A stretch of 64,000 nucleotides of DNA, taken from NCBI RefSeq assembly GCF_014199295.1, contig NZ_JACIJH010000002.1:482348-546347 (forward strand). The letters run 5' to 3'. The DNA comes from Sphingopyxis panaciterrulae. GTDB lineage: Bacteria > Pseudomonadota > Alphaproteobacteria > Sphingomonadales > Sphingomonadaceae. The notes below the pieces were generated by a model, which was not told the origin of the DNA, did no database searches, and saw only the letters and a list, made by a program, of their open reading frames with translations. The position numbers and the translations under genes are program-made. The first letter of the stretch is position 1, and every line of letters starts with the position of its first letter. This document shows positions 20,264 to 59,144 of this stretch, piece after piece.

Positions 20264-20297
20264 TATAGGGGAAACGAAGTTCGCGGCATTGGCAATC

Positions 20298-20489: not shown

Positions 20490-20518
20490 AGGGACAGGCA
20501 TAGGGCTTCGGGCGGCGA

Positions 20519-20614: not shown

Positions 20615-20643
20615 TAAATCAAGTTTCATTGACTAAAAGTCAA
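20607..20643 (-). promoter_or_regulatory. AT-rich palindromes with promoter-like TTGAC boxes
   Basis: CTTGACATTAAATCAAG (20607-20623) and the palindrome TTGACTAAAAGTCAA (20629-20643) form closely spaced TTGA/TCAA dyads in a markedly AT-rich patch. On the minus strand TTGACT could serve as a -35 for the 31-codon frame beginning at 20614. Both dyads could be operator half-sites for a small helix-turn-helix regulator. Function is inferred only. Confidence 0.35.
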
Positions 20644-20757
20644 GAAAACATGACGATACCGCTCGATGCCCATGTCGCGATGCGCGGCACTTTCGGCAAC
20701 TTCCGCGCATCCCCTCCCTCTGACCGCCGCCGCCGGACTCGCCCCTCTGCCAAAAAA

Positions 20758-20802
20758 CTGTAATCTTCCTGTCAACTGATTGTCACCGATCGCTTCTAGG
20801 CG
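20758..20802 (+). promoter_or_regulatory. triple Pho-box-like array and -10 upstream of gspC
   Basis: CTGTAAT (20758), CTGTCAA (20769) and TTGTCAC (20780) repeat with exact 11-nt periodicity. They match the PhoB half-site CTGTCAT at 6, 6 and 5 of 7 positions. Ten bases after the last unit is TAGGCG (20797-20802), where the -10 lies in PhoB-dependent promoters. gspC starts 44 bases further on. This is the stronger of the two Pho-like sites in the window. Confidence 0.65.
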
Positions 20803-20846
20803 ATTCGCGAGACCCGTATTTTCAGTTTGGGGGAAATGGACAGCCT

Positions 20847-21701
20847 ATGGCGACGCTGATGCCCGGATCGGCCATTCGGCTGCCGCGTGCGCTTCCCGCC
20901 TGGTTGCGGGTGCGGCCGCGAAGCGCCCGCGACCTGGGACCGCGGCTCGCCCTCGGCCTGATCGGGGGGCTGCTTGTCATCCAGGCGGTGCGGTTGCTCT
21001 GGGCGCTGACCGTCCCGTTGTCGCCGCTCGGCGCGTGGCAGCCGCCCACCGCCGCCATCGCCTCGCCGGCGGAGCGCCGCGCGCTGTTCGCCGGCTTCGA
21101 TCCCTTCTTCCGCACCGGCGGGCAGAGCCCCGCGGCCGCCACCGTCACCGCGCTCGGCCTCACCCTCTACGGCGTGAACATCAACGAGGCGACGGGCGGC
21201 GGTTCGGCGATCATCGCGGCCGAGGACGGGGAGCAGGCGAGCTACGCCGTCGGGGACGAGGTCGCGCCGGGCGTCCGGCTCGCCGGCGTCGCCTTCGACC
21301 ATGTCACCCTCGACCGCGGCGGCGCGCAGGAAAGCCTGTTCCTCGACCAGAGCGGCGAGGCGCCGGTCGCCAGTCCCGCGCTGCCCGCCCCGACGCCGGA
21401 GGTCGGATCGGGCGGCGAACTGTCGCCCGCCGCGCTCAAGGCCGGCATCGGCTTCGCTCCCCGCACCGAGGACGGCCGCGTCACCGGCCTGCTCGTCCAG
21501 CCGCAGGGCGATGGCTCGGTCTTCCGCGCCGCGGGCCTGCGCCCGGGCGATGTCGTCCGTTCGGTCAATGGCCGCCCGATCGGCTCGGCCGGCGATGCCG
21601 CCGCGCTCGCGGGCCAGCTCGCTCCCGGCGCGCGCCTCTCGCTCGAGGTCGAGCGCGGCGCGAGCGTCGTTCCGGTCGCCATCTTCCTCTCCAAACAATA
21701 G
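20847..21701 (+). CDS. gspC: type II secretion system protein GspC
   Basis: A 284-residue inner-membrane protein. A cytoplasmic N-terminus is followed by one membrane helix at about 34-52 (RLALGLIGGLLVIQAVRLL). The periplasmic homology region covers about 80-170 (FDPFFRTGG, then LTLYGVNINEATGGGSAII). A C-terminal PDZ domain covers about 200-284 (GLRPGDVVRSVNGRPIGSAG). GspC links the inner-membrane platform to the secretin GspD. It is the first gene of the gsp operon, behind the Pho-box-like promoter, and six bases separate it from gspD. Confidence 0.93.
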   Translation: MATLMPGSAIRLPRALPAWLRVRPRSARDLGPRLALGLIGGLLVIQAVRLLWALTVPLSPLGAWQPPTAAIASPAERRALFAGFDPFFRTGGQSPAAATVTALGLTLYGVNINEATGGGSAIIAAEDGEQASYAVGDEVAPGVRLAGVAFDHVTLDRGGAQESLFLDQSGEAPVASPALPAPTPEVGSGGELSPAALKAGIGFAPRTEDGRVTGLLVQPQGDGSVFRAAGLRPGDVVRSVNGRPIGSAGDAAALAGQLAPGARLSLEVERGASVVPVAIFLSKQ

Positions 21702-21707
21702 GTCAGC

Positions 21708-45770: not shown

Positions 45771-46133
45771 TTGAAATATGTCGAGGTTGTCGAATGGTCG
45801 GCGAAGGACGGCGGCGTTCGCTTCACCGTGAAGGATGAGGATCAGGCGCTTCACAGCTTTGAGGTAGGCGCCGAATGTTCCGCGGTCCTGGCAGGCGCGC
45901 TGGTCGCCGAATTCGAAAAGCGCGACGGGCCGGACCGCGAAGCGCAGTTGCTCCGCCCGGTCGGGATGCAGACCGGGAAGACGGCGCAGGATGAGCCGAT
46001 GCTGTTCATGACGCTTCGCGGCGGGGCCGAACTGCCCTTCGTTTTCAAGCGCGAAAGCCTGGACGTCCTGATATCCGAGCTCCAGAAGCTCAAAGAGCTT
46101 ATCGAACCCGGAGCGCAGATCCACTGGCGTTAA
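45771..46133 (+). CDS. unrecognised 120-residue protein
   Basis: No family is recognised. The soluble, acidic protein starts MKYVEVVEWSAKDGGVRFTV, carries beta-strand-like sequence to about 100 (PMLFMTLRGGAELPFVFKRE) and ends in an amphipathic helix (DVLISELQKLKELI). It lacks a signal peptide and cysteine clusters. It follows the 265-residue gene and may act with it. Confidence 0.7.
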   Translation: MKYVEVVEWSAKDGGVRFTVKDEDQALHSFEVGAECSAVLAGALVAEFEKRDGPDREAQLLRPVGMQTGKTAQDEPMLFMTLRGGAELPFVFKRESLDVLISELQKLKELIEPGAQIHWR

Positions 46134-46145
46134 CCGGCGCCCTTC

Positions 46146-46183
46146 GTCATTGCGACCCCGGGCTTCGCCGGGGTCGTAATGAC
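46146..46183. repeat. short palindromic repeat GTCATTGCGACCCCGG
   Basis: A 16-bp stem with one mismatch closes a GCTTCG loop and reads GTCATTGCGACCCCGG on the left. It begins 13 bases after the preceding stop. The rest of 46184-46417 shows no gene; promoter elements for bpt are not evident. Confidence 0.65.
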
Positions 46184-46417
46184 GCCTCTGGGATGCGGGG
46201 GAGGCGCGATCATCTTTGCGAACGGACTCCGACCCGATTCAAAACGGGACAAGAGTTAGCGGGCGATTCAGGAAATTTGCATTTTGGCCGTTTCGGGCGC
46301 CGCGAAGTTGGTAAATTGACTTTGCACCATCGGCGGGGCGCGGCATAGTCGGGGACAACCCAAGCGTCGGGGGGCGCCCAAGCCGTCCGCCGCCGAGCCC
46401 TGGAGGAAGCCGCACCC

Positions 46418-47191
46418 GTGTCCGCGCCGTTTCGTTTTCCGCGCTTCTTCGTGACCAGCCCCGCGCCCTGCCCCTATATTGCGGGCAAGACCGAGCGGAA
46501 GGTGTTCACCGAGCTTAGCGGCAACAATGCGAACGAACTCAACGACGCGCTGGGGCGGATCGGATTCCGCCGCAGCCAGTCGGTCGCCTATCGGCCGAGC
46601 TGCGCCGATTGTTCGGCCTGCGTGTCGGTGCGCGTGCGCGCCGGCGAATTCGCCCCCAGCCAGTCGCAGAAGCGCAACCGGCGCCGCAACCGCGACCTTG
46701 TCGTCACCGCCTGCAAGCCGTGGGCGACCGACGAGCAATATCAGCTTCTGCGCGCCTATCTGCTCTCGCGCCACCCCGACGGCGGCATGGCCGACATGGA
46801 CGAGCAGGATTTCGCCGACATGGTCGAGCAGACCCCGGTCGACAGCTATATGATCGAATATCGCGAGCCGACGAGCGACGGCGGCCGCGGCCGCCTCGTC
46901 GGCTGCTGCCTGACCGATCGGCAGGGCGACGGGCTGTCGATGATCTACAGCTTCTTCGACGCGCAGCATCCCGCGCGCGAAGGGCTGGGCACCACGATCA
47001 TCCTCGACCATATCGAGCGCGCCGCGCGCGCCGGACTGCCTTATGTCTATCTCGGTTACTGGATCGAAGGGTCGACCCGCATGGCCTATAAGGCGCGCTT
47101 CCGCCCGCTCGAACGGCTCGGCCCCGACGGCTGGTCGCGCTTCGAACCGGTGGCGTCGGACAAGATCGCGGCGCTGTTCGAACTGGCCTGA
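46418..47191 (+). CDS. bpt: Bpt/ATE-family aminoacyl-tRNA-protein transferase
   Basis: A 257-residue protein. The N-terminal ATE domain has [18 protein letters not shown] and [20 protein letters not shown]; the C-terminal ATE domain has [30 protein letters not shown] and [20 protein letters not shown]. Bpt adds leucine to N-terminal Asp or Glu of N-degron substrates for ClpSP degradation. Start GTG 46418 has GGAGGA upstream. Whether it uses leucine or arginine cannot be decided from sequence by eye. Confidence 0.9.
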
Positions 47192-47253
47192 GAGGGCGGC
47201 GGCGATCTTCGGCGGCGGGCCGGCTTGAATTTCCGGTTTCTTTCTTCCTTCGC

Positions 47254-47506
47254 CATGCTGAACTTGTTTCAGCATCCATGGCGTGGTTTCTCTATTTCCC
47301 GCCCCGTTTCCTTCGAGGGCAGGCCATGGACCCTGAAACAAGTTGGCGCTTATCGCTTTCGCATCCGTCATCCCGTCATTGCGAGCGGAGCGAAGCAATC
47401 CAGAGTGCGCGCAAACCGCTCTGGATTGCTTCGCTCCGCTCGCAATGACGAAGTAAGGAGGCTTACGGATGCCAAGGGTATAATTGCCAAACAAGTTCAG
47501 GGTGAC
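47254..47506. repeat. dispersed ~100-bp palindromic repeat, copy 3, interrupted
   Basis: The left arm (CATGCTGAACTTGTTTCAGC onwards) and the first part of the right arm (ending CCCTGAAACAAGTT at 47344) are separated from the remainder (AAACAAGTTCAGGGTGAC, 47489-47506) by a 144-bp insertion. Removing the insertion and one copy of the 9-bp duplication restores a standard right arm. Confidence 0.8.
47345..47488. mobile_element. 144-bp MITE-like element with 9-bp target-site duplication
   Basis: The element is flanked by direct repeats AAACAAGTT (47336-47344 and 47489-47497). Its 24-bp terminal inverted repeats begin GGCGCTTAT on the left and GGCAATTAT on the complement of the right end; they match at 18 of 24 positions and share GCATCCGT. 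The core holds a perfect 31-bp palindrome (47375-47405 with 47419-47449) that starts GTCATTGCGAGCGGAGCG. It contains no gene and must have been mobilised by a transposase elsewhere. Confidence 0.75.
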
Positions 47507-47657
47507 GAAAAAAAGAGGCGCGAACCGACCTCCACCTCTGTATCCGTCACCGGTTGACCTCTTCCCGCTTTCGGGGGCATAGCTCCGTGTCCAGGGCATA
47601 AGTCCGGGTCGCATCCGAAATTGGTCGCCAAGGGGCTGGCGAGGGGGAGGGGTGCTC

Positions 47658-47726
47658 GTGCGTGCCTGTGTCTGTGTGATGGGTGTCTGCATGATCGGCG
47701 TCAGCGCCATCGGAGCCGCCGCGTGA
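47658..47726 (+). CDS. possible 22-residue leader peptide of the redox operon
   Basis: A GTG-initiated frame encodes a short hydrophobic peptide (MRACVCVMGVCMIGVSAIGA, then A, A), with three cysteines. Its TGA overlaps the GTG start of the 811-residue redox protein (GTGA). GGGAGG lies about seven bases before the start. The layout suggests translational coupling or a small membrane peptide, but no relative is recognised. Confidence 0.4.
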   Translation: MRACVCVMGVCMIGVSAIGAAA

Positions 47727-50158
47727 GCGGGCTGGTGCGGGTCGCGATCATCGGCTCGGGCCCGGCGGGGCTCAGCGCCGCGGCGCGGGCCGCGCAGCTC
47801 GGGCTCAGCCATGTGCTGCTCGAAAAGACCGACCATCTGTCCGACACCATCTTCAAATATCAGAAGGGCAAGCGCGTGCTCGCGACGCCCGAACGGCTCG
47901 ACCTGCGCTCCGACTGCCGCTTCGGCGAGGCGGCGCGCGAGACGATCCTTGCCGACTGGGACGCCGATGCGGCGGCCAGCAAGGTCGAAGTCGTCTATAA
48001 TGCCGAGGTGGTCGAAGTAACGGGCGCGAAAGGCGCGTTCGAGATCAGGACCGCGAAGGGCGACACGATCGCCGCCGAGGCGATCGTGCTCGCCATCGGC
48101 ACCCAGGGCAATCCCAACCGGCTGCGCTGCCCCGGCAACGACCTGCCGCACATCATCTATCAGGTCGACGACCCGGAGGATTTCAAGGACAGGCATATCA
48201 CCGTCGTCGGGTCGGGCGACGCGGGGATCGAGAATGCGCTGGGCGTCGCCGAGGAGGCGCTGGAGAATCGCGTCACCATCCTCAACCGATCGAAGGAGTT
48301 CGCGCGCGCCAAGGCGAAGAATGTCGCCGACCTGACGGAGGCGGGCGAGAATGGCACGATCGACATCCGCACCGAGACGCAGCCCAAGCTGGTCGAGGAG
48401 GGCTGGCTGACGCTGGAAACCCCCGACGGCGATGAGCGCATTGCCTGCGACACCATCGTTGCGCGGCTGGGGTCGGTGGCGCCGCGCGCCTTTGTCGAGG
48501 CGATGGGCATCGAATTCACCGGCCCCGACCGCGAGGCCTTTCCCAAGCTGTCGCCGACCTTCGAGACCAGCGTGCCCGGCCTGTATGTCATCGGCGCGCT
48601 CGCGGGCTATCCGCTCATCAAGCATTGCATGAACCAGGGCTATGACGTCGTCGAGTTCATCAACGGCAACACGGCGCTGACCCCCGCCGACGAAAAGGAT
48701 CTGGCGGCGATCTTCGCCGGCCTGCCGCAAGAGAAATCGGTCAGCGAATGGCTCGATTTCCTGCGCGCGCGCGTCCGCATCTTCGCCGACGTGTCGCCGT
48801 TGCAGATGCGCGAGTTCATGCTCGATTCGACCGTCGGTTTCTACCGGCAGGGCGAGGTGGTGTTCGAGAAGGGCGATCCGGGATCGTCGCTGTTCGCCAT
48901 CGCCGAGGGCCATGCCGAGGTCGAGGTCGCGCCCGGCGTCACGGTGCCGATCGAGGAAGGCTCGATCTTCGGCGAGGTCGGACTGATTTCGGGGCGCAAG
49001 CGCGGCGCGACGATCCGCGCCGGCGCCGACAGCATCTTCGTCGAGGTGTCGCGCACGGCGGCGCTCAAGCTGATGGCGGCGGTGCCGGGGGCGAAGCGCG
49101 CGATCGACCGCATATCGCTCGAACGGCAATTGCTCCAGATCTTCAAGGGCGGGCTGACGGTGGAGGATCTGGCGCCCGTGGTCGAGGGGGCCGAGGTGGT
49201 GCGCGTCCCCGCGGGCAAGGTCGTGCTGACCGAGGGCGACGAGGGCGACGATGTCTATGTCATCCGGTCGGGCTCGATGGTGGTCGAGAAGGATATCGGC
49301 GGCAAGCCGATCTTTCTGCGCTATCTGCCCGCGGGCAGCTATTTCGGCGAGATGGCGGTGCTGAGCGGCGAGAAGCGCAACGCGACGGTCAAGGCGGCGG
49401 TCGGCAGCGAGGTCATCAAGCTGACCGGCGCGGGTTTCAAGGCGATGCTGGCGGCGCGGCCGCAGGTGCGCGAGGCGACCGAGGCCGCGGTTGCTGAGCG
49501 CGCGGCGATGAACGGCTTCATCGAATCGCGCAAGGCGAGCTATGCGAGCGCGGTCGACCTCTATTCCGACACCGCGAGCTTCATCATGAAGGAGGGGCTG
49601 GGCGAGGCGACCGACGCGCTGCTGATCGACGAGAATCTGTGCGTCGGCTGCGACAATTGCGAAAAGGCGTGCGCCGACAGCCATGAGGGGCTGTCGCGGC
49701 TCGACCGCGAGGCGGGCAAGACCTTCGCGCATCTGCACGTGCCGACGAGTTGCCGCCACTGCGAACATCCGCACTGCATGGCCGACTGCCCGCCCAACGT
49801 CATCCACCGCGGCCCCGACGGCGAGGTGTTCATGGAGCCGGGCTGCATCGGCTGCGGCAACTGCATGCGCAACTGCCCCTATGGCGTGATCCGCATGGAG
49901 GCGACGCCGCCGCCCAAGCCGGGCCTCTTGAGCTGGCTTCTGCTGGGCCGGGGGCCGGGGCCGGGCGAACCGTCGCCCAAATGGACCAAGAAGCGGCTGG
50001 GCGAAGAGAAGCCCAAGAAGATCGCGGTCAAATGCGACATGTGCAAGGGGATCGCCGGCGGCCCCGCCTGCGTGCGCGCCTGCCCGACCGGCGCCGCGAT
50101 CCGCGTGTCGCCCGAGGAATTCCTGTCGATCGCCCGGCTCGAGGAGGATGCGGGCTGA
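47723..50158 (+). CDS. FAD/NAD(P) reductase fused to two cyclic-nucleotide-binding domains and a four-cluster 4Fe-4S module
   Basis: An 811-residue cytoplasmic protein. Residues 1-320 form a thioredoxin-reductase/YpdA-like flavin oxidoreductase: FAD motif GSGPAG at 11-16, nucleotide motif GSGDAG at 163-168, no CxxC. Two cyclic-nucleotide-binding domains follow at about 355-465 and 485-590; their phosphate-cassette segments FGEVGLISGRKRGAT and FGEMAVLSGEKRNAT keep the Glu and Arg that contact cyclic nucleotide. Residues 635-790 are a DmsB/HybA-like ferredoxin module with 16 cysteines (640, 643, 646, 650; 677, 680, 685, 689; 708, 711, 714, 718; 771, 774, 783, 787), enough for four clusters. The stop overlaps the next gene (TGATG). 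Inferred role: NAD(P)H-dependent electron donor gated by cAMP or cGMP. Confidence 0.88.
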   Translation: MSGLVRVAIIGSGPAGLSAAARAAQLGLSHVLLEKTDHLSDTIFKYQKGKRVLATPERLDLRSDCRFGEAARETILADWDADAAASKVEVVYNAEVVEVTGAKGAFEIRTAKGDTIAAEAIVLAIGTQGNPNRLRCPGNDLPHIIYQVDDPEDFKDRHITVVGSGDAGIENALGVAEEALENRVTILNRSKEFARAKAKNVADLTEAGENGTIDIRTETQPKLVEEGWLTLETPDGDERIACDTIVARLGSVAPRAFVEAMGIEFTGPDREAFPKLSPTFETSVPGLYVIGALAGYPLIKHCMNQGYDVVEFINGNTALTPADEKDLAAIFAGLPQEKSVSEWLDFLRARVRIFADVSPLQMREFMLDSTVGFYRQGEVVFEKGDPGSSLFAIAEGHAEVEVAPGVTVPIEEGSIFGEVGLISGRKRGATIRAGADSIFVEVSRTAALKLMAAVPGAKRAIDRISLERQLLQIFKGGLTVEDLAPVVEGAEVVRVPAGKVVLTEGDEGDDVYVIRSGSMVVEKDIGGKPIFLRYLPAGSYFGEMAVLSGEKRNATVKAAVGSEVIKLTGAGFKAMLAARPQVREATEAAVAERAAMNGFIESRKASYASAVDLYSDTASFIMKEGLGEATDALLIDENLCVGCDNCEKACADSHEGLSRLDREAGKTFAHLHVPTSCRHCEHPHCMADCPPNVIHRGPDGEVFMEPGCIGCGNCMRNCPYGVIRMEATPPPKPGLLSWLLLGRGPGPGEPSPKWTKKRLGEEKPKKIAVKCDMCKGIAGGPACVRACPTGAAIRVSPEEFLSIARLEEDAG

Positions 50159-51051
50159 TGGCGAGCCTCTTCTCCGGAAAGATATTGCGCCGCCGGGCGC
50201 GCGCGACCCAGACCGAGCGGGTGCGCGAGCGGCGCCACGAAGGCTTCCTGCGCTATGCGGGCTTTCGCTGGGCCAAGATTTCGGGTGGGCTCTGCCTGCT
50301 CGTCATCGTTAGCTATGCGCTGATCGACGTCCAGCCGCGGCCCAATGGCGGAAGCTGGTACGGCTATACGCTCGGCACCGTCGGAGCGCTGCTGATCCTG
50401 TGGCTCACCGCATTGGGCTATCGCAAGCGGCGGATGACGCGCGATTACTGGTCGCTGAAGGCGTGGACCTCGGCGCATGTCTATCTGGGGCTGAGCCTGA
50501 TCGTCATCGGGACGTGGCACACCGGATTCCAGCTCGGCTGGAATGTGCATACGCTGGCGTGGGCGCTGATGATGCTCGTGATCCTGTCGGGCCTTTACGG
50601 CGTGATCGTCTATGCGACGCTGCCGGCCGCGCTGTCGAACAATCGCGACCAGATGACGCAGATGCAGATGCTCGAGGCGATCCGTGCCTTCGACCGCCAG
50701 CTTCATGCCGCCGCGCAGCCGCTGGGCGCCGCCGACACCGCGCCGGTGCTCGCGGCGCTGGAGGAGGACCCGTTCGCGGGCGGCATCCGGGCGCGGCTGA
50801 CCGGGCGCTATCCGCGCTGCGCGACCGCCGCCGCGCAGCGTGCACTGGCCGCCGCGACCGGCGGCGAGGCCGAGGCGCGGGCGAAGGTGGTCGCGCTGCT
50901 GACGCAGAAGCAAGCGGCGCTGGCGCGGCTGCGCGCGCACCTGCGGCTGCGCGCGCTGCTCGAGGTGTGGCTCTATGTGCATGTGCCGCTGACCTTCGCG
51001 CTGATCGCGGCGCTGTCGGCGCATGTCATCAGCGTCTTCTTCTATTGGTAG
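50158..51051 (+). CDS. five-helix membrane protein, candidate quinone/heme b electron carrier
   Basis: A 297-residue inner-membrane protein. Five likely helices are visible: GLCLLVIVSYALIDV, YTLGTVGALLILWLTALGY, AHVYLGLSLIVIGTWHTGF, HTLAWALMMLVILSGLYGVI and a last segment VHVPLTFALIAALSAHVISV. Histidines near helix ends (AHV, WHT, VHT, VHV, SAHV) could bind b-type hemes, as in cytochrome b561 or ferric-reductase-like proteins. A cytoplasmic loop of about 90 residues separates helices four and five. It is the natural link between the cytoplasmic Fe-S protein and the periplasmic decaheme. The family is not recognised with certainty. Confidence 0.8.
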   Translation: MASLFSGKILRRRARATQTERVRERRHEGFLRYAGFRWAKISGGLCLLVIVSYALIDVQPRPNGGSWYGYTLGTVGALLILWLTALGYRKRRMTRDYWSLKAWTSAHVYLGLSLIVIGTWHTGFQLGWNVHTLAWALMMLVILSGLYGVIVYATLPAALSNNRDQMTQMQMLEAIRAFDRQLHAAAQPLGAADTAPVLAALEEDPFAGGIRARLTGRYPRCATAAAQRALAAATGGEAEARAKVVALLTQKQAALARLRAHLRLRALLEVWLYVHVPLTFALIAALSAHVISVFFYW

Positions 51052-51061
51052 GGCGGGGACG

Positions 51062-52945
51062 ATGAGCTTCATCCTGCGCCGCATCGCGACGACCAAGACG
51101 GGCAAGCAGATCGTCCGCGACCAGCCGCTGGACGGCGACACGATCACGCTGGGGCGCGACAGCGGCAATGCGATCCACGTCGCCGACCTGGCGGTCAATC
51201 CGCAGCATGCGACGATCGCCAGCGCCGACGGCCGCCACGTCCGCGTGACCGCGCAGGCGGGGCTGGGCTTCGACCTCAACGGCCGGACGCTCGACGTCGC
51301 CGACATCGACAGCGCGGCGGGCGCCGAGCTGCGCTTCGGCGGCCACCGCCTGACGATCGCGCGCGAGGGCGAGGATATCGTGCTGCTCGTCGAGCGCATC
51401 GACGAACTGTCGCAATCGTCGAAGGACGTCGACGAGACGCGCGCCTTCTCGCTCGCCGGGGTGCTGCCCGGCAAGCGCGTCGGTGCATGGACCTTCGCGC
51501 TGCTGATGCTGCTCGCCTTTCTGGTCGGGCCGATCTGGGCGTGGCACAGCTATCGCGGGGTCGACGAGCGGCCACAGGGCTTTCATGCCGACCAGGCGTG
51601 GCTGTCGGGGCCGCTGTCGAGCGCGCACGCCAATCTGAAGGGCGATTGCCAGTCGTGCCATGTCGAGCCCTTCGTCGCGGTGACCGACAGGGCGTGCGTC
51701 GGCTGCCACACCGGCGAGCACAAGGCGATGAGCCAGGCGCATGCGGATGCGCCGCCCGCGATGCTGCTCGCCGCGCGCGCGCCGCCCGGCGTCGGCGGGC
51801 GGGTGCTCGCGGGCTTTGCCCACGCCTTCAACAAGCCGCCGGGGCGCTGCGTCGATTGCCATAGCGAGCATGAGGGCGCCGGGCCGATGCCCGCGACGCC
51901 GCAGAAATTCTGCGCCGACTGCCACGACGGCATGGCGGCGCGGCTGAAGGCGGCGGGTTTCAAGGCGACGGTCGCCGACGCCGCCGATTTCGGCACCGGC
52001 CACCCCGAGTTCCGCCCGCTCGTCCGCGCCGCGCCGGGCGCGAAGCCGGGGCGCGCGGCGCTCGGCCAGGGGGCGGTCGCCGATTATGGCGGGCTGAAAT
52101 TCCCGCACGACCTCCACCTGCAGGCGAACGGCGGGGTCGCGCGGATGGCGGCGAGCTTCCGCGGCCGTTATGACTTCGGCAAAAAGCTCGAATGCGCAAA
52201 CTGCCACCGGCCCGAGGCGGACGGGGTACGGATCGCGCCGGTCGAGATGGAGCGCGACTGCGCGATGTGCCACAGCCTGGCCTTCGAGAGCGTCGGCGGC
52301 GTCACCCGCACCTTGCGCCACGGCGAGCCCGATCAGGTCGTCGCCGACCTTTATGCCTATTACCGCTCGACCCCCCCGGCGCGGCCGCTGCAACTCGGCG
52401 GCATGGAGCGGCGGCGCCCCGGCGGCTATGCCGAGGGGCAGGTCTACAACATCTATTTCCGCGAACGCGCGGCGCGGCCGGCGCGCGCCGCCGACGCGGT
52501 GCGCGCGGTCTTTTCCAAGGGCGGCGCCTGCTACGACTGCCACACCGTCGTGCCGCCGGCGGCGGGCCAGGGCTGGCAGGTCGAGGCAGTGCATCAGACG
52601 CCGCGTTTCCTGGGCAAGGGCTGGTTCGACCATGACGCGCACAAGGAAACGGCCTGTGCCGACTGCCACACCACGGCACCGCGCTCGAAGCAGGCGAGCG
52701 ACCTGCTCGTCCCCGGCCTGTCGCAATGCCGCGACTGCCATGTCGGCGAGAGCGGCGCGCGGCTGGCCAAGGTCGAGACGGCGACCGCGTCGCCTTGCGC
52801 CATGTGCCACGAATATCACGGCGATGGCGGCAAGCCGTGGGTGCCGGCGCGGCAGCGGCGCAAGCCTGTGATCGCGATCACGGGCGCACAGACCCGCGCG
52901 CTTTATTCCGTGGCTTGGCGCGCGCCGGGCGCCGGGGGCGGATGA
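51062..52945 (+). CDS. FHA-TM-decaheme cytochrome c
   Basis: A 627-residue protein. The N-terminal forkhead-associated domain occupies about 1-110 (ITLGRDSGNAIHVADLAVNP, with Gly31-Arg32, Ser34 and His49 in the phosphothreonine-binding pattern). One membrane helix lies at 142-162 (AWTFALLMLLAFLVGPIWAW). The periplasmic part has ten CxxCH heme sites: CQSCH (196-200), CVGCH, CVDCH, CADCH, CANCH, CAMCH, CYDCH, CADCH, CRDCH and CAMCH. FHA must be cytoplasmic and the hemes periplasmic, which fits one N-in helix. Start ATG 51062 has GGGGAC upstream. No protein kinase gene is seen nearby. Confidence 0.88.
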   Translation: MSFILRRIATTKTGKQIVRDQPLDGDTITLGRDSGNAIHVADLAVNPQHATIASADGRHVRVTAQAGLGFDLNGRTLDVADIDSAAGAELRFGGHRLTIAREGEDIVLLVERIDELSQSSKDVDETRAFSLAGVLPGKRVGAWTFALLMLLAFLVGPIWAWHSYRGVDERPQGFHADQAWLSGPLSSAHANLKGDCQSCHVEPFVAVTDRACVGCHTGEHKAMSQAHADAPPAMLLAARAPPGVGGRVLAGFAHAFNKPPGRCVDCHSEHEGAGPMPATPQKFCADCHDGMAARLKAAGFKATVADAADFGTGHPEFRPLVRAAPGAKPGRAALGQGAVADYGGLKFPHDLHLQANGGVARMAASFRGRYDFGKKLECANCHRPEADGVRIAPVEMERDCAMCHSLAFESVGGVTRTLRHGEPDQVVADLYAYYRSTPPARPLQLGGMERRRPGGYAEGQVYNIYFRERAARPARAADAVRAVFSKGGACYDCHTVVPPAAGQGWQVEAVHQTPRFLGKGWFDHDAHKETACADCHTTAPRSKQASDLLVPGLSQCRDCHVGESGARLAKVETATASPCAMCHEYHGDGGKPWVPARQRRKPVIAITGAQTRALYSVAWRAPGAGGG

Positions 52946-52988
52946 TGATTCGGGCGACCGGGGGGCCGGCGCGGAGCAGGGGACGGAG

Positions 52989-53837
52989 ATGCTGATCGCG
53001 CAGATCACCGACATCCATATCGGCTTCGATCCGGACAATCCGGCCGAATATAACCGCAAGCGCCTCGACGACGTCCTCGACCTGCTGATCGAGGGGCCGA
53101 ACCGCCCCGACCTGCTGCTGGCCACCGGCGACATCACCGACCGCGGCGACCCCGACAGCTATCGCCGGCTGGAAACCGCCTTTTCGCGTTGCCCCTTTCC
53201 GGTGTGGCCGAGCGTCGGCAATCACGACCTGCGCGACAATTTTCATGCCCATTTCCCCGGCTTCGACGACGGCGACGGCTTCGTTCAATATGCGATCGAA
53301 CTGCCCGAACTGCGCCTCGTCACCATCGACACGCTGGAGGAAGGGCGCCACGGCGGCGCCTTCTGCGCCGCCCGCGCCGCCTGGCTCGACGCCGAACTGG
53401 CGAAGGACGCGGCCAAGCCCACCTATATCGTCATGCACCATCCGCCGGTCGAAAGCGGCATCGAATGGATGAACACCCATCCCGACGAGCCGTGGGTCCA
53501 TCGCTTTACCGAGGTGGTGCGCCGGCACGATCAGGTGCGCGGGCTGATCTGCGGCCACCTGCACCGCGCGGTCACCGTCGCGTGGGAGGGGCGCACCATC
53601 GCCATCTGTTCCTCGACCGCGCCGCAGGTCTCGCTCGACCTGCGCCCGATCGACGCGGACGCCCCCGACGACCGCCCGATGATCGTCGCCGAGGATCCTG
53701 CCTATGCGCTCCACCGCTGGAACGGACGCGAGCTGGTCAGCTTCTACGATCATGCCGGCGCCCACACGATGCTTGCCAAATATGACGCGCGGTTGCAGCC
53801 GCTGGTGCGCGAGCTGAAGGCCGAGCGGCCGGTTTAG
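52989..53837 (+). CDS. CpdA-like class III 3',5'-cyclic nucleotide phosphodiesterase
   Basis: A 282-residue metallophosphoesterase. The metal motifs are DIH (Asp8, His10), GDITDRGD (Asp48), GNHD (78-80), HHPP (His150-151) and GHLH (His190, His192). The order and length match CpdA-type cAMP phosphodiesterases. GGGGACGGAG precedes the start, and the gap to the decaheme gene is 43 bases. Lying beside a protein with two cyclic-nucleotide-binding domains, it is a good candidate for the enzyme that resets the signal. Substrate identity is inference. Confidence 0.85.
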   Translation: MLIAQITDIHIGFDPDNPAEYNRKRLDDVLDLLIEGPNRPDLLLATGDITDRGDPDSYRRLETAFSRCPFPVWPSVGNHDLRDNFHAHFPGFDDGDGFVQYAIELPELRLVTIDTLEEGRHGGAFCAARAAWLDAELAKDAAKPTYIVMHHPPVESGIEWMNTHPDEPWVHRFTEVVRRHDQVRGLICGHLHRAVTVAWEGRTIAICSSTAPQVSLDLRPIDADAPDDRPMIVAEDPAYALHRWNGRELVSFYDHAGAHTMLAKYDARLQPLVRELKAERPV

Positions 53838-53909
53838 GGGAGAGGTGACGGGAGGCCTTGCAAAGGCCGTTGGTTGCGCCATTTGCGAACTCGAGGCGTC
53901 ATCTCCTTC

Positions 53910-54010
53910 GTCACCCTGAACTTGTTTCAGGGGCCATGGCCTGCCCTTGAACGCAGCGCAGCGTCGAAGGAGATGCCGGGCCATGGATGCTGAAACAAGT
54001 TCAGCATGAC
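53910..54010. repeat. dispersed ~100-bp palindromic repeat, copy 4
   Basis: It reads GTCACCCTGAACTTGTTTCA on the left and TGAAACAAGTTCAGCATGAC on the right, with a CATGGCC/GGCCATGG pair inside. It lies between the phosphodiesterase gene and the convergent hutC end. The remaining 53838-54063 bases hold nothing else. Confidence 0.85.
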
Positions 54011-54063
54011 GAAGGAAGAGGCCGGTGCTCCAACCCGAAGGGTCTGCGCCTTTGCGACGAGGC

Positions 54064-54783
54064 TCAGCCTTCTTGCCCCCCGCTCGGCCCGAAACGCGCG
54101 ACCAGGTCATAGGCGTCGCCGGGGAAGATCTGGCGCACATGGGTGACCCCCTCGGCGCGGCGCCAGGTGCGGCGCTCGACGCAGAGGCAGGCGGTACCCG
54201 GCGCGACCTGAAGCAGGCGAGCGACGGCGGGGGATGCCGCAAGCGCCGAAATGCGCGTCTCCGCCTCGGTCCAGGGGATATGGCGGAGCAGCCATGTTCC
54301 CGGCGGGGTGTCGTCGGACCCGGCATCGGCGATGTCCGGAACGGCGGCGAGGCTGACGAGGCGATATTCGACCGCCAACGGAATGTTGTCGGCCAGATGC
54401 AGTCCGTCGAGCTGGATGAGTCGCCCCGCGCCGGCGAGCTGCGTCTCGGCTGCGTTTCCCGTTTCGGGGTCGCGGATGCGGCGTTCGAGGGGGACATAGG
54501 CGTAATGCTGGCCGCGCTCGCGGATCTGGGCCGCGAGGTCGGGCACGTCGAGGATCATCGAATGGACACGCGGCCGCGCGACGAAGGTGCCCGCGCGCTT
54601 GCGCCGGTCGATCAGCCCCGCGGCGGCCAGCGCCGACAGCGCCTTGCTGACCGTCATGCGCGCGCAGCCATATTGCGCCATCAGCGCCTGCTCGGTCGGC
54701 AGGCGGTCGCCGGGCGCCAGCTCGCCGGCGAGGATGCGCGCCTCGAAATCGGCGCGGATGCGCTCGTGGAGCGGCCCGCTCAT
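54064..54783 (-). CDS. hutC: histidine utilisation repressor HutC (GntR family)
   Basis: A 239-residue regulator. The winged helix occupies about 1-75 (LAPGDRLPTEQALMAQYGCA, then RMTVSKALSALAAAGLIDRR). The UTRA effector domain follows, with LERRIRDPETGNAAE, IPLAVEYRLVSL and CVERRTWRRAEGVTHVRQIF. HutC proteins bind urocanate and release hut operators. The gene overlaps hutF by four bases and is co-transcribed with it. Confidence 0.92.
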   Translation of the reverse strand: MSGPLHERIRADFEARILAGELAPGDRLPTEQALMAQYGCARMTVSKALSALAAAGLIDRRKRAGTFVARPRVHSMILDVPDLAAQIRERGQHYAYVPLERRIRDPETGNAAETQLAGAGRLIQLDGLHLADNIPLAVEYRLVSLAAVPDIADAGSDDTPPGTWLLRHIPWTEAETRISALAASPAVARLLQVAPGTACLCVERRTWRRAEGVTHVRQIFPGDAYDLVARFGPSGGQEG

Positions 54784-56156
54784 GCGAGCAGCCGCGCGAG
54801 GGTGGCGGCGTAGCGCGCGGCGACGGCCTCGCGCGCGCGGTGCCGTCCGGCCGCGACCAGCCTGTCGCCGCGCCGCCACACGCCATCGACCGCGCCGCGC
54901 CCGGCCGCGAAGACGAAGGCGTCGAGCAACAGGTCGCCATCCCGGCCCGCGAGCGAGGGATGGTCGCGGTCTAGGCTGACGATATCGGCGGACGCGCCGA
55001 CCGTGAGGCCGGCGGGGGCGCCGAGCGCGGCGCCGCCCCCCTCGACCGCGGCGGCGTAGAGGTCGGTCCCGGTCGAGCGGCCCTCGCCGCGCGCGAGCAG
55101 GTTGCGGCCGCGCCGCGCGAGGCGCTGGCCATATTCGAGCAGGCGCAGTTCCCCGGCGGCGTCGATCCGCACATTGGAATCGCTGCCGACCCCGTAGCGC
55201 CCGCCTGCCGCGACGAACGCCTCTGCCGGGAACAGGCCGTCGCCGAGATTGGCCTCGGTGATCGGACAGAGGCCGGCGACCGCGCCGCTTTGGGCCATCG
55301 CGGCGGTTTCGCCGGCGGTCATGTGGGTCGCGTGGACGAGGCACCAGCGCGCGTCGACCGCGGCATGGTCGAGCAGCCATTCGACCGGCCGCGCGCCGCT
55401 CCATGCAAGGCAATCCTCGACCTCCTTCATCTGCTCGGCGATGTGGATATGGACCGGGCGGCCCTCGGCGAGGGGCGCGAGCGCCGCCAGTTGCCCGGCC
55501 GACACCGCGCGCAGGCTGTGCGGGGCGACGCCGACGACCGCGTCGGGCAGGTGCGCCGCCGCCGCGTCGGCACCGGCGAGCAGGCGCGCATAACCGTCGA
55601 GGTCGTGGACGAAACGCGCCTGCGCTGGCGTCGGCGGCTGCGCACCGAATCCGGCGTGGGCGTAGAGGACGGGGAGCAGGGTCAGCGCGATGCCGCTTTC
55701 GGCCGCGGCGTCGACGATCGCGGCGCTGGTTTCGGCGGGATCGGCATAGGGCGCGCCGCCCGGCGCATGGTGCAGATAGTGGAATTCGCCGACGCGGGTG
55801 AAGCCGCTTTCGAGCATCTCGACATAGGCGAGCGCTGCGACGGCGCGGATGTCGTCGGGGGTCATCCGATCGAGAAAGCGGTACATGGTCTCGCGCCACG
55901 TCCAGAAGCTGTCGCCCGCCGGTCCGCGCCGCTCGGCGAGTCCGGCCATGCCGCGCTGGAAGGCGTGGCTGTGGAGGTTGGGAAGACCGGGCAGCGCGCA
56001 ACCGTGGCGCGCGTCGCCGGGGGCGGGCGCGGCGCCGGTTTCGACGGCGGCGATCCTTCCCGCGGCGATGGTCAGGCGCACGCCGCGCGCCCAGCCCGAG
56101 GGCAGCAGCGCGTCGTCGAAGAAGAGATGATGTTCGGTCGCCTGTTCGCCAGCCAT
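54780..56156 (-). CDS. hutF: formimidoylglutamate deiminase HutF
   Basis: A 458-residue amidohydrolase. The metal motif is LPNLHSHAFQRGMAGLAE. It continues with FWTWRETMYRF, VGEFHYLHHAPGG, VHIHIAEQMKEVEDC, LVHATHMTAGE and GVGSDSNVRID. It converts N-formimidoyl-glutamate to N-formyl-glutamate and ammonia. ATG 56156 has GGAGG upstream; the longer in-frame extension encodes an Arg-rich stretch that runs toward the neighbouring repeat. Confidence 0.92.
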   Translation of the reverse strand: MAGEQATEHHLFFDDALLPSGWARGVRLTIAAGRIAAVETGAAPAPGDARHGCALPGLPNLHSHAFQRGMAGLAERRGPAGDSFWTWRETMYRFLDRMTPDDIRAVAALAYVEMLESGFTRVGEFHYLHHAPGGAPYADPAETSAAIVDAAAESGIALTLLPVLYAHAGFGAQPPTPAQARFVHDLDGYARLLAGADAAAAHLPDAVVGVAPHSLRAVSAGQLAALAPLAEGRPVHIHIAEQMKEVEDCLAWSGARPVEWLLDHAAVDARWCLVHATHMTAGETAAMAQSGAVAGLCPITEANLGDGLFPAEAFVAAGGRYGVGSDSNVRIDAAGELRLLEYGQRLARRGRNLLARGEGRSTGTDLYAAAVEGGGAALGAPAGLTVGASADIVSLDRDHPSLAGRDGDLLLDAFVFAAGRGAVDGVWRRGDRLVAAGRHRAREAVAARYAATLARLLA

Positions 56157-56190
56157 GATCCGCCTCCGTCTCCGCCTTCTCTCTTCTCGC

Positions 56191-56291
56191 GTCATGCTGA
56201 ACTTGTTTCAGCATCCATGGCCCGGTCTTGCTGCAAACGCCGCGTAAGCCGAGAGGGCAGACCATGGATGCTGAAACAAGTTCAGCATGAC
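56191..56291. repeat. dispersed ~100-bp palindromic repeat, copy 5
   Basis: It begins GTCATGCTGAACTTGTTTCA and ends TGAAACAAGTTCAGCATGAC, with 28-bp near-perfect outer arms including CCATGG. It separates hutF from the hutI promoter region. Confidence 0.85.
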
Positions 56292-56343
56292 GAAGGCGGG
56301 AAGGGTGGCGCCTTTCGTCTGCGTCATCCCTACCGCCTGCATT

Positions 56344-56357
56344 TATGTCTATACATT
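56344..56357. promoter_or_regulatory. candidate HutC operator
   Basis: The dyad ATGTCTATACAT is a short AT-rich palindrome (ATGT/ACAT arms) in the divergent hutF-hutI region, about 60 bases before hutI. GntR/HutC proteins usually bind sites of this type. TACATTATT inside it could also be a -10. Assignment is inferred from position and symmetry. Confidence 0.45.
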
Positions 56358-56418
56358 ATTGTGCGATTGGTGCAATCTCGCGGCATCAGGACAGAATGAG
56401 TCAGGGATCGAGGCGATC

Positions 56419-57618
56419 ATGCGCTGTGACAGGCTGTGGACCGATGCGCGGCTGGCGACGATGGCGGGCGACGGGCTCGGCATCGTCGAGCGGGGTGTGG
56501 TCGCGGCGAAGGGCGGCGCGATCCTCTATGCCGGCGCGGCCGCCGACGCGCCGGCGTTCGAGGCCGATGCGGTAACCCGCTGCGACGGGCGCTGGATCAC
56601 GCCTGGCCTGATCGACTGCCACACCCATCTGGTCCACGCCGGCAATCGCGCCCGCGAATTCGAGATGCGGCTCGAGGGCGCCTCCTATGAAGAGATCGCC
56701 CGCGCCGGGGGCGGCATCGTCTCGACCATGCGCGCGACGCGGGCGGCGAGCGAGGCGGAACTGGTCGCCACCGCGCTGCCGCGCCTCGACGCGCTGCTCG
56801 CCGAAGGCGTGACGACGGTCGAGATCAAGTCGGGCTATGGGCTCGATACCGACAGCGAGATCCGCATGTTGCGCGCCGCGCGGCGGCTCGGCGAGGTGCG
56901 CGACGTGCGGGTTTCGACGACCTTCCTCGGCGCGCACGCGCTGCCGCCCGATTATGAAGGCGACGCCGACGCCTATATCGCCCATGTCGTGGACGCGATG
57001 CTGCCCGAGGTCGCGCGGCTCGGCCTCGCCGACGCGGTGGATGCTTTTTGCGAAACCATCGGCTTCACCGCCGCGCAGACCGGGCGGTTGTTCGAGGCCG
57101 CGACCCGTGCCGGGCTGCCGGTGAAGCTCCACGCCGAGCAATTGTCGAACCAGCATGGCGCCGCGCTCGCCGCGCGCTTCGGGGCGCTGTCGGCCGATCA
57201 CCTCGAATATCTGGATCAGGCGGGCGTCGCGGCGATGGCGAAGGCGGGCACGGTCGCGACTTTGCTGCCCGGCGCCTTTTATTTCGTGCGCGAAACGCGC
57301 CTGCCGCCGGTCGCGGCGCTGCGCGCGGCGGGTGTCCCCATCGCGCTCGCGACCGACTGCAACCCCGGCACCTCGCCGCTGACTTCGCCGCTGCTGGTGA
57401 TGAACATGGGCGCGACCTTGTTCCGCCTGACCGTCGCCGAATGCCTGCGCGGCGTCACGCGCAACGCGGCCGCGGCGCTGGGGCTCGGCGACCGCATCGG
57501 GACGCTCGAAGCCGGCAAGGCCTGCGACCTTGCGATCTGGGACGTCGAGCATCCCGCCGAGCTCGTCTATCTTATGGGGCTGAACCCGCTCCATGCCCGC
57601 ATATGGAGTGGCCGATGA
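56419..57618 (+). CDS. hutI: imidazolonepropionase HutI
   Basis: A 399-residue amidohydrolase. The metal-binding segment is [20 protein letters not shown]. Other key regions are [64 protein letters not shown] and [12 protein letters not shown]. It opens 4-imidazolone-5-propionate to formimidoylglutamate. ATG 56419 follows GAGGCG. It overlaps hutH by four bases. Confidence 0.95.
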
Positions 57619-59144
57619 CCGATATCCTCCTCGTTCCCGGCGCCGTTTCGCTGGCCGACTGGCGCGCCATCCACCGCGGCGCCGCGGTGCGGCTCGACCC
57701 GGCGGCGGCGTCGCGCATCGCCGAAAGCGCCGCGGCGGTCGGCCGCATCCTCGCGCATGGCGACCCGGTCTATGGCATCAACACCGGTTTCGGAAAGCTG
57801 GCGAGCGTGCGGATCGACGCGGCCGACCTGGCGACCCTTCAGCGCAATATCGTGCTCAGTCACGCGGCGGGGACCGGGGCGCCGTCGCCGGCGCCGGTGG
57901 TGCGGCTGATGATGGCGCTCAAGCTCGTCAGCCTCGCGCAGGGCGCCTCGGGGGTGCGACCCGAAACGGTGGCGTTGCTCGAAGCGATGCTGGGACAAGG
58001 GCTGACCCCCGTGGTGCCGTCGCAGGGCTCGGTGGGGGCGAGCGGCGACCTCGCCCCGCTCGCGCATATGGCGGCGGCGATGATCGGGGTCGGCGAGATC
58101 GAGCTGGCGGGCGAACGGCTGCCCGCCGCCGAGGCGCTCGCGCGCGCCGGTCTGGCACCGCTGGACCTGGCCGCGAAGGAAGGGCTGGCGCTGCTCAACG
58201 GCACGCAATTTTCGACCGCCAATGCGCTCGCCGGTCTCTTCGCGGCCGAAACGCTGTTCGCCGCCGCGCTCGTCACCGGCGCGCTGTCGACCGAGGCGGC
58301 CAAGGGGTCGGACACCCCCTTCGACCCGCGCATCCACGACCTGCGCCGCCATCGCGGGCAGATCGAGGTCGCGGCGGCGCTGCGCGCGCTGATGGCGGGA
58401 TCGGCGATCCGCGCCAGTCACCGCGACGGCGACCCGCGCGTGCAGGACCCCTATTGCCTGCGCTGCCAGCCACAGGTCATGGGCGCCGCGCTCGACCTGC
58501 TGCGCCAGGCCGCGACGACGCTGGCGGTCGAGGCGAACGGCGTGTCCGACAATCCGCTGATCTTCCCGGATGCCGATGAGGCCCTGTCGGGCGGCAATTT
58601 CCATGCCGAGCCGGTCGCCTTCGCCGCCGACATGATCGCGCTGGCGCTGTGCGAGATCGGCTCGATCGCCGAGCGGCGGATCGCAATGCTGGTCGACCCG
58701 GCGCTGTCGGGACTGCCCGCCTTCCTGACCCCGCAGCCGGGGCTGAATTCGGGCTTCATGATCCCGCAGGTCACGGCCGCGGCGCTGGTCAGCGAGAACA
58801 AGCAGCGCGCCTATCCGGCGAGCGTTGATTCGATCCCAACCTCGGCCAATCAGGAGGATCATGTGTCGATGGCGGCGCACGGCGCGCGGCGGCTGCTTGC
58901 GATGGCGGAGAATGCGAGCGCGGTGATCGGCATCGAGCTGCTCGCGGCGGCGCAGGGGTGCGATTTCCATGCCGGGCTGGCTTCGTCGGGCGCGCTGGAG
59001 GCCGTGCGCGGCCGGCTGCGCGCGGCGGTGCCGATGCTCGACCACGACCGGCATTTCCACCCGGACATGGAGGCGGCGACCGCGCTGGTGCGCGGCGGCG
59101 CGGTGGCGGAGGCGGCGGGGCTGGCGCTGCCGGGGATCGCCTGA
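57615..59144 (+). CDS. hutH: histidine ammonia-lyase HutH
   Basis: A 509-residue lyase converting histidine to urocanate. The self-forming MIO group comes from Ala142-Ser143-Gly144 in [32 protein letters not shown] and the C-terminal [14 protein letters not shown] are also conserved. It is the normal length for the family. ATG 57615 overlaps the hutI stop. Confidence 0.97.

What the first reader, a model, noticed from the sequence alone, without database searches (positions are those of the whole stretch)
47658..53837. Cyclic-nucleotide-gated transmembrane electron pathway
Five consecutive frames are tightly spaced or overlapping: a possible leader peptide, an FAD/NAD(P) reductase fused to two cyclic-nucleotide-binding domains and four 4Fe-4S clusters, a five-helix membrane protein, an FHA-TM-decaheme cytochrome, and a CpdA-like phosphodiesterase. 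Seen directly: 16 ferredoxin cysteines, two phosphate cassettes with Glu and Arg kept, ten CxxCH sites, and all CpdA metal motifs. Inference: electrons flow from NAD(P)H through flavin and Fe-S clusters across the membrane to periplasmic hemes, switched by cAMP or cGMP and reset by the phosphodiesterase. I know of no characterised system with this set.
Basis: partly seen in the sequence, partly recalled or inferred. Interest (0 to 1): 0.92.

Follow-up and report, generated by a model that had tools for sequence, protein, structure and literature searches.

The report
Cyclic-nucleotide-gated electron export pathway
This Sphingopyxis-like bacterium carries a four-gene operon, kept in the same order in nearly all the related genomes that have it, whose proteins are predicted to carry electrons from NAD(P)H out through the inner membrane to a chain of hemes and would likely be switched by a cyclic-nucleotide signal, which would make it an electron pathway with a built-in second-messenger gate.

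Summary
Operon: short leader ORF; A (FAD/NAD(P)H reductase, 2 cyclic-nucleotide domains, 4 [4Fe-4S]); B (5-TM, four-histidine pattern of a diheme b cytochrome); C (FHA-TM-decaheme); D (SpdA/CpdA-like phosphodiesterase). A-B-C stays together in every Sphingomonadales locus with room and in most other Pseudomonadota loci examined; adjacent D was seen only in Sphingomonadales. Glu and Arg of both nucleotide pockets are kept in 108-109 of 109 rows. All 19 genomes with that decaheme, of 289 Alphaproteobacteria, have A. A second form lacks the reductase but keeps a pocket, four clusters, the same four membrane histidines and a decaheme (14 of 14 loci). Best reading: NAD(P)H-driven, nucleotide-gated electron export to terminal multihemes of the envelope. 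Binding, direction and final acceptor are untested; the phosphodiesterase 'reset' is weakest. Ten searches of open-licence papers found no description.

The parts
47554..47583 (+). promoter-like TTGACC - 18 bp - CATAGC, conserved upstream of A across Sphingopyxis-type loci
   Evidence: conserved block in an alignment of 22 upstream regions; read by eye, start site not shown
47652..47726 (+). short leader ORF (24 codons from GTG 47652), stop overlaps the start of A
   Evidence: conserved start, open frame and overlapping TGA in 22 of 22 loci, 17-26 aa
47723..50158 (+). gene A: FAD/NAD(P)H reductase - 2 cNMP-binding domains - 4 [4Fe-4S] (811 aa)
47738..48640 (+). A: TrxR/YpdA-like FAD and NAD(P)H domain (res. 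6-306)
   Evidence: PF07992 3.5e-32; GxGxxG 109 of 109
48842..49078 (+). A: cyclic-nucleotide-binding domain 1
   Evidence: PF00027 1.4e-13; E418 and R427 109 of 109
49199..49453 (+). A: cyclic-nucleotide-binding domain 2
   Evidence: PF00027 7.7e-18; E543 108 of 109, R552 109 of 109
49640..50083 (+). A: 16 cysteines of four [4Fe-4S] clusters (res. 640-787)
   Evidence: each 109 of 109; Fer4 families
50158..51051 (+). gene B: 5-TM membrane protein, four-histidine (diheme b-type) pattern H107/H121 and H275/H289
   Evidence: His 104 of 104, 14 of 14 in distant homologues; model pLDDT 87.6
51062..52945 (+). gene C: FHA - TM - decaheme c-type cytochrome (627 aa)
   Evidence: 10 CxxCH in 100 of 102 rows, 9 in two; FHA PF00498 in 43 of 49 members
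52989..53837 (+). gene D: class III phosphodiesterase, SpdA/CpdA-like
   Evidence: PF00149 7.2e-16, NCBIfam SpdA 140 bits and CpdA 78 bits, both under cut-off; metal motifs invariant in 75 of 75

Best explanation
The operon encodes a redox protein (A) with a flavin/NAD(P)H domain, two cyclic-nucleotide-binding domains and four iron-sulphur cluster motifs, a membrane protein (B) that would hold two b-type hemes, and a membrane-anchored decaheme (C), which together are predicted to carry electrons from NAD(P)H across the inner membrane and would likely be gated by a cyclic nucleotide. Shown by sequence: domains, ligand residues, gene order, linkage. Inferred: NAD(P)H reduces the FAD of A; electrons pass through four [4Fe-4S] clusters to an inner heme (H107/H275) and an outer heme (H121/H289) of B, then to the ten hemes of C, then to terminal multihemes of the outer envelope (decaheme-LVIVD with HbpS-like protein, porin-like barrel and tetraheme in this lineage; a pentaheme plus an outer-membrane-type protein in others). 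Moving electrons outward drains NAD(P)H and membrane potential, so a gate is expected: nucleotide on the two domains between reductase and clusters would set whether the halves of A make contact, and the cytosolic FHA domain of C may add phospho-threonine control. D may lower the nucleotide locally in Sphingomonadales. The final acceptor is unknown; a substrate that enters through the barrel is my first guess.
For: Domains. Both pockets keep Glu and Arg in 108-109 of 109 A rows, all 16 Cys in 109 of 109, B histidines in 104 of 104, ten hemes of C in 100 of 102; as a control, 3 of 6 other CNBD proteins read in the same genome lack Glu and Arg. Gene order: B next to A in 22/22, 56/56 and 21/28, C next to B in 22/22, 53/53 and 23/27 loci (Sphingopyxis-type, other Sphingomonadales, other Pseudomonadota). 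Outer block in the same cluster elsewhere and at G000:C20 here. Co-occurrence: 19 of 19 genomes with the decaheme-LVIVD among 289 Alphaproteobacteria have A, 11 of 11 among 398 Pseudomonadota. Sister form without the reductase keeps 16 Cys, one full pocket and the four B histidines (14 of 14). The genome has two class III cyclase domains. Charge pattern of B puts H107/H275 on the cytosolic and H121/H289 on the periplasmic side.
Against: Nothing shows nucleotide binding or electron flow. B has no significant family or PDB match (PF01292 only 18.7 bits, cut-off 30.1). A is patchy: it is in own genome, one same-genus and 6 same-family genomes and absent from 11 listed same-family genomes. A occurs without B or C in the DNA held of L127, L136 and L158, and without the decaheme-LVIVD in 7 of 26 class genomes and 4 of 15 phylum genomes. 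The barrel model has 18 strands and an AlgE-like fold, which does not suggest a sheath around a decaheme. D is not adjacent outside Sphingomonadales (0 of 26). The co-occurrence figures ignore kinship between genomes.
Confidence: 0.6

Rival explanations
1. The electron route is right but the cyclic-nucleotide domains no longer sense anything: they are a structural spacer, and there is no second-messenger gate.
For: No binding was tested; after the Arg of domain 1 stands Gly in 85 of 109 rows, where small Ala/Ser/Thr are usual (recalled); in the sister form a second cassette-like stretch is not canonical.
Against: Glu and Arg of both pockets are near invariant across rows that fall to 42-50% identity, and the one canonical pocket of the sister form keeps both in 14 of 14; other CNBD proteins of this genome have lost them (3 of 6 read).
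Confidence: 0.17
2. The system is an Ext-type oxyanion or metal reductase: the point is reduction of a toxic or respirable substrate (selenite, tellurite or similar) that enters through the barrel, and the cyclic nucleotide is only tuning.
For: The decaheme-LVIVD scores best against ExtM (68.8 bits) and the pentaheme of the sister form against ExtKL (56 bits); the barrel model is a porin-like channel; loss of the porin ExtI affects selenite/tellurite conversion in Geobacter (PMC5877670, passages read).
Against: All scores far below the curated cut-offs (800, 250); inner-membrane parts differ (Ext has a Rieske protein and a cytochrome b; no flavin or cNMP protein is named in the passages read).
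Confidence: 0.2
3. Electrons run inward: an external or periplasmic donor reduces C, B and A to make NADPH.
For: The parts are in principle reversible; multiheme/porin conduits for Fe(II) oxidation run inward (recalled).
Against: Inward flow to NADP+ is uphill against redox potential and membrane potential; the host groups are mostly aerobic heterotrophs (recalled); I saw no obvious donor oxidase among the recurring neighbours (by eye, most neighbours not annotated).
Confidence: 0.07
4. A-B-C and the outer cytochrome block are separate pathways that merely sit together.
For: In Sphingopyxis they lie in different places.
Against: Same order in one cluster in distant families; 19 of 19 and 11 of 11 co-occurrence; the sister form has its own outer block in 14 of 14 loci.
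Confidence: 0.06

Closest known systems
Geobacter extHIJKLMNOPQS cluster (ExtI porin, ExtKL/ExtM/ExtN/ExtS multihemes, ExtO Rieske, ExtP cytochrome b); PMC5877670, passages read
   Same: inner-membrane b cytochrome plus several multihemes plus a porin in one cluster; ExtM and ExtKL are the best named hits of the decaheme-LVIVD and of one pentaheme
   Different: no flavin reductase, cyclic-nucleotide or FHA protein named there; Rieske instead of 4x[4Fe-4S]; scores far below family cut-offs
CbcL-type inner-membrane quinol cytochromes of Geobacter (recalled)
   Same: diheme b domain joined to a c7-type multiheme c cytochrome, like B + C
   Different: takes electrons from quinol in one polypeptide; here a separate NAD(P)H/FAD/Fe-S protein with cNMP domains; sequence relation not tested
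MtrCAB / porin-cytochrome conduits (recalled)
   Same: decahemes and an outer-membrane barrel linked in one cluster
   Different: barrel model is 18-strand AlgE/OprD-like, not a wide sheath; C is inner-membrane anchored; outer decaheme carries LVIVD repeats
NADPH oxidases (NOX/ferric reductase family; recalled)
   Same: NADPH -> FAD -> two stacked b hemes across the membrane, with a regulatory gate, drains reductant outward
   Different: iron-sulphur relay and decaheme; no sequence relation seen; gate would be a cyclic-nucleotide domain
AegA/HycB/HydN polyferredoxins and YpdA/TrxR-like reductases
   Same: best named hits of the two ends of A
   Different: no cNMP domains (recalled); A lacks a conserved CxxC and is below the cut-off of every NCBIfam row shown

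Membership tests
cyclic-nucleotide-binding domain (PF00027) | domain over Pfam cut-off | tested here: met
   two stretches, 52.8 and 66.4 bits, cut-off 27.5
cyclic-nucleotide-binding domain (PF00027) | Glu and Arg of the phosphate cassette kept | tested here: met
   E418, R427, R552 109/109; E543 108/109
cyclic-nucleotide-binding domain (PF00027) | binds a cyclic nucleotide | not testable with these tools
   needs a binding assay
YpdA / thioredoxin reductase | NCBIfam whole-protein cut-off | tested here: not met
   YpdA 133 bits, cut-off 340; TrxR 59, cut-off 343
YpdA / thioredoxin reductase | conserved redox CxxC (TrxR, recalled) | tested here: not met
   the four Cys outside the Fe-S part are kept in 31, 72, 101 and 87 of 109 and form no CxxC
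diheme membrane cytochrome b | two TM helices each with a His pair 13-14 residues apart | tested here: met
   H107/H121 and H275/H289 104/104; 14/14 in the sister form, where H131 is replaced in at least 12 of 14; helices in model
diheme membrane cytochrome b | known family (PF01292 cytochrome b561) or fold | tested here: inconclusive
   18.7 bits, cut-off 30.1; no informative PDB fold match
FHA domain | PF00498 match, Gly-Arg and His motif | tested here: met
   43 of 49 members at E<=0.01; G31, R32 102/102, H49 92/102; the window's own copy only PF16697, under its cut-off
CpdA / SpdA phosphodiesterase | class III metal motifs | tested here: met
   D8, H10, D48, N78, H79, H150, H190, H192 75/75
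CpdA / SpdA phosphodiesterase | NCBIfam cut-off | tested here: not met
   SpdA 140.2 of 400; CpdA 77.7 of 225
MtrCAB porin-cytochrome complex | wide MtrB sheath (26 or more strands, recalled) | tested here: not met
MtrCAB porin-cytochrome complex | outer decaheme of MtrC/MtrF type (PF22113) | tested here: not met
   no PF22113 match at E<=0.001 in the decaheme-LVIVD of this genome
Geobacter Ext cluster | ExtM/ExtKL over NCBIfam cut-off | tested here: not met
   68.8 of 800 and 56 of 250
Geobacter Ext cluster | role in selenite/tellurite reduction | not testable with these tools
   needs a deletion strain

The most novel reading that the evidence does not exclude
Bacteria own a widespread class of trans-envelope electron pathways that are opened and closed by a second messenger at the protein level: a cyclic nucleotide bound inside the electron-transfer protein itself decides whether cytosolic NADPH (or, in the sister form, another reduced donor) is drained through a diheme membrane cytochrome and a decaheme to terminal cytochromes of the cell envelope. 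It would be a bacterial counterpart in principle to gated NADPH oxidases, present in two forms with interchangeable outer modules.
Probability: 0.45. Interest if true: 0.92.

Novelty: new variant of a known kind. Interest (0 to 1): 0.8.

Why it matters
Known links between cyclic nucleotides and multiheme electron transfer act on transcription (recalled). Here the nucleotide pockets sit inside the redox protein, between the flavin domain and the clusters, so signalling and electron flow could be joined in one polypeptide. One or other form is in 45 of 289 sampled Alphaproteobacteria (26 type I, 19 type II, none with both), so it would be a common, unnamed branch of envelope redox chemistry, and one whose gate can be tested with one purified protein.

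Tried and rejected

Limits of counts: A/B/C/D rows come from loci chosen by similarity to A and include 21 close Sphingopyxis-type loci (L009-L029; a few of these, and of L030-L088, are titled only by higher ranks and are placed by similarity). For A, 108 of 110 ORFs passed a length filter; B 103 of 104, C 101 of 101, D 74 of 74; barrel C-terminus 36 of 42 ORFs passed. Adjacency needed a gap of -200 to 900 bases and enough contig, so some misses may be contig ends or badly chosen starts. 'Other Pseudomonadota' there are 28 loci outside the window's order. Only 6 of the 9 other PF00027 matches of the genome were read for the control. Type II clusters were read in 14 of the 20 places listed; B-profile scores there are 23-68 bits, and in L195 the pentaheme is cut by the contig end. 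The query was a 503-residue piece cut by a contig end, so full-length relatives were not candidates.
Full report
WHAT IS THERE. The window lies in a 4.43-Mb genome in 35 contigs, at G000:C2:482348-546347; the nearest named relatives of A in the protein search are Sphingopyxis (92% identity; one unnamed protein has 97%). The stretch 47652-53837 holds five same-strand frames: a 24-codon leader, A (811 aa), B (297 aa), C (627 aa) and D (282 aa). The leader's TGA overlaps A's GTG start (4 shared bases) and A's TGA overlaps B's ATG (1 base), the usual layout of translationally coupled genes. No Rfam family lies in 46000-54500.

THE PROTEINS. A joins a YpdA/thioredoxin-reductase-like FAD/NAD(P)H domain, two PF00027 domains and a polyferredoxin part closest to AegA/HycB/HydN. 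In 109 rows (window plus 108 loci) the FAD glycines, all 16 ferredoxin cysteines, and Glu/Arg of both phosphate cassettes are kept (E418, R427 and R552 109, E543 108), while the four other cysteines vary and form no CxxC. As a control I read six of the nine other PF00027 matches of this genome: three keep Glu and Arg, three have lost both (by eye), so retention is not automatic. B is a five-helix membrane protein; an AlphaFold model (57 sequences, mean pLDDT 87.6) places H107 and H121 in helix 100-122 and H275 and H289 in the last helix. All four are invariant in 104 of 104 rows, and so is H131. The basic residues sit on the N-terminus, the loop 88-99 and the large loop 156-267, so H107/H275 face the cytosol and H121/H289 the periplasm: two stacked hemes across the membrane (inferred). 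C has an N-terminal FHA-like domain, one TM helix and ten CxxCH; 100 of 102 rows have ten, two have nine, and G31-R32 of the FHA motif are invariant; 43 of 49 members match PF00498. D is a class III phosphodiesterase with the metal residues kept in 75 of 75 rows, nearest to SpdA but below its cut-off.

THE LEADER IS REAL. Upstream of A, 22 of 22 Sphingopyxis-type loci (window and L009-L029) have a G-rich ribosome site, a conserved start and a 17-26-codon ORF whose TGA overlaps A's start; the start lies 50, 62, 65, 68, 71, 74 or 77 bases before A, always 2 mod 3. A promoter-like TTGACC-18-CATAGC is conserved further up. What the leader does is not known.

GENE ORDER. B is next to A in 22 of 22 Sphingopyxis-type, 56 of 56 other Sphingomonadales and 21 of 28 other Pseudomonadota loci with room; C next to B in 22/22, 53/53 and 23/27; D next to C in 20/20, 51/53 and 0/26. 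A-B-C is therefore the module and an adjacent D a Sphingomonadales trait in this sample (one locus of another order, L159, has a 37%-identical D some 5 kb further on). Exceptions where A stands without B and C in the DNA held: L127, L136 and L158. The module is patchy: in a sample of 398 Pseudomonadota, A is in the window's genome, one same-genus and six same-family genomes, and missing from 11 listed same-family genomes.

THE OUTER HALF. In many families A-B-C runs straight on into a small secreted protein, a protein with three HbpS-like stretches (PF03928), a barrel-like protein and a 1244-1463-aa secreted protein with ten CxxCH and C-terminal LVIVD repeats (PF08309). Of 59 loci L030-L088 (10-kb flanks, some cut by contig ends) 36 have that decaheme and 34 the barrel downstream, mostly on the opposite strand, and 45 a CcmI/CycH-like cytochrome-maturation protein upstream. 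In the window's genome the block is elsewhere: G000:C20 holds, on one strand with small gaps, a tetraheme (13638-15077), the HbpS-like protein (15083-17062), the barrel (17174-18985) and the decaheme-LVIVD (18988-23208), with a CcmI-like gene divergent. The decaheme has ten CxxCH in 36 of 36 complete ORFs; the barrel ends in Tyr or Phe in 36 of the 36 ORFs of 540-800 aa (of 42).

CO-OCCURRENCE. Among 40 genomes of the genus A is found in 36 and the decaheme-LVIVD in 38; two 99%-complete genomes lack both, two poorer ones (85% and 73% complete) lack A alone. Among 289 Alphaproteobacteria 26 have full-length A (my count, best E at most 8.5e-204; 279 have some match at E<=0.001, most of them to one domain only) and 19 the decaheme: all 19 have A. 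Among 398 Pseudomonadota the figures are 15 and 11, all 11 with A. Chance would give this with about 3e-24 and 2e-18 if genomes were independent, which they are not. A without this decaheme: 7 of 26 and 4 of 15; two of these (G060, G105) carry instead a tetraheme, a pentaheme and an outer-membrane-type protein beside A-B-C, and G424 has the HbpS-like protein and barrel at its contig end.

A SECOND FORM. The class search with A also hit 558-607-aa frames that cover only its second half. Of two such proteins scanned, one has three PF00027 stretches and one two; both have 4Fe-4S families and no reductase domain. In 14 of 14 neighbourhoods read they are followed by a B-like membrane protein (profile scores 23-68 bits) and a C-like decaheme, with a pentaheme (cut by the contig end in L195) and an outer-membrane-type protein in the same neighbourhood. 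All 16 cysteines, one complete nucleotide cassette and H107, H121, H275 and H289 of B are kept in 14 of 14, while H131, invariant in form I, is replaced in at least 12 of 14. This is an independent test of the diheme reading and shows that nucleotide domain + polyferredoxin + membrane histidines + decaheme is the conserved core, the flavin reductase being one of at least two ways to feed it. Form II is in 19 of 289 class genomes, none of which has form I.

MECHANISM. Most likely: NAD(P)H -> FAD -> 4 [4Fe-4S] in A -> inner then outer heme of B -> ten hemes of C -> terminal multihemes. An electron leaving the cell this way costs reductant and membrane potential, so an always-open path would be harmful and a gate is expected. 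The two nucleotide domains lie between flavin and clusters, and the large cytosolic loop of B and the FHA domain of C are on A's side of the membrane. I infer that a cyclic nucleotide sets the contact of the two halves of A, or of A with B. The genome encodes two class III cyclase domains, so a nucleotide source exists. Every step of flow, binding and gating is inference. D could lower the nucleotide, but its nearest named family acts on 2',3'-cNMPs (name), so 'reset' is not supported beyond adjacency.

KNOWN SYSTEMS. The outer cytochromes are nearest to ExtM and ExtKL of the Geobacter ext cluster (68.8 and 56 bits against cut-offs of 800 and 250), where loss of the porin ExtI affects selenite and tellurite conversion but not Fe(III) citrate reduction (PMC5877670, passages). 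The inner-membrane parts there are a Rieske protein and a cytochrome b, not A-B-C. B + C resemble CbcL in plan (recalled). A search with an N-terminal piece of one decaheme-LVIVD found 1261 relatives; among the 120 listed, those that bear a name are called 'hypothetical protein' or 'multiheme c-type cytochrome' and come from Alphaproteobacteria, Gammaproteobacteria, Burkholderiales and, as MAGs, Vicinamibacteria and Bacteroidetes. Ten literature searches found no description (list and limits under Tried and rejected).

VERDICT. Observation confirmed, interpretation partly supported and extended: a conserved, unnamed envelope electron pathway with nucleotide-binding domains in its cytosolic redox protein. 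I file it as a new variant of multiheme envelope electron-transfer systems; if the gate is shown, it would be a new kind of control.

Noticed in passing
L180, L181, L190-L201 (e.g. L180:1103-9002 -): Sister system: CNBD/4x[4Fe-4S] protein without reductase domain + B-like + C-like decaheme + pentaheme + outer-membrane-type protein, 14 of 14 neighbourhoods; 19 of 289 alphaproteobacterial genomes. Its electron donor is unknown.
   Followed up: partly
G000:C20:13638-23208 (L172:4638-14208): Second locus of the same genome: tetraheme, HbpS-like protein with a lipobox-like signal (by eye), AlgE-like barrel, decaheme-LVIVD.
   Followed up: partly
L131:14418-19164, L134:2346-7308: Form I A-B-C sits beside the tetraheme/pentaheme/outer-membrane set typical of form II: outer modules look interchangeable.
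   Followed up: partly
window 47652-47726 and the same place in L009-L029: Conserved 17-26-codon leader (often MPVR[AR]F...) overlapping the start of A; function unknown.
   Followed up: partly
G000:C12:28698-29791: A class III cyclase domain next to a CNBD protein with a canonical phosphate cassette: a possible nucleotide source or sensor pair.
   Followed up: no
L056:5998-6573 and 4 more of 59 loci: Small two-TM protein upstream of A, which by recall looks like a Pycsar TM effector; not tested.
   Followed up: no
window 47240-47480 and 53900-54020: Similar stretches (GAACTTGTTTCAG...) flank the operon on both sides, like dispersed intergenic repeats; read by eye.
   Followed up: no
window 54064-59144: Downstream frames look by eye like a histidine-utilisation (hut) cluster; upstream 46418-47191 is an arginyl-tRNA-protein transferase.
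   Followed up: no
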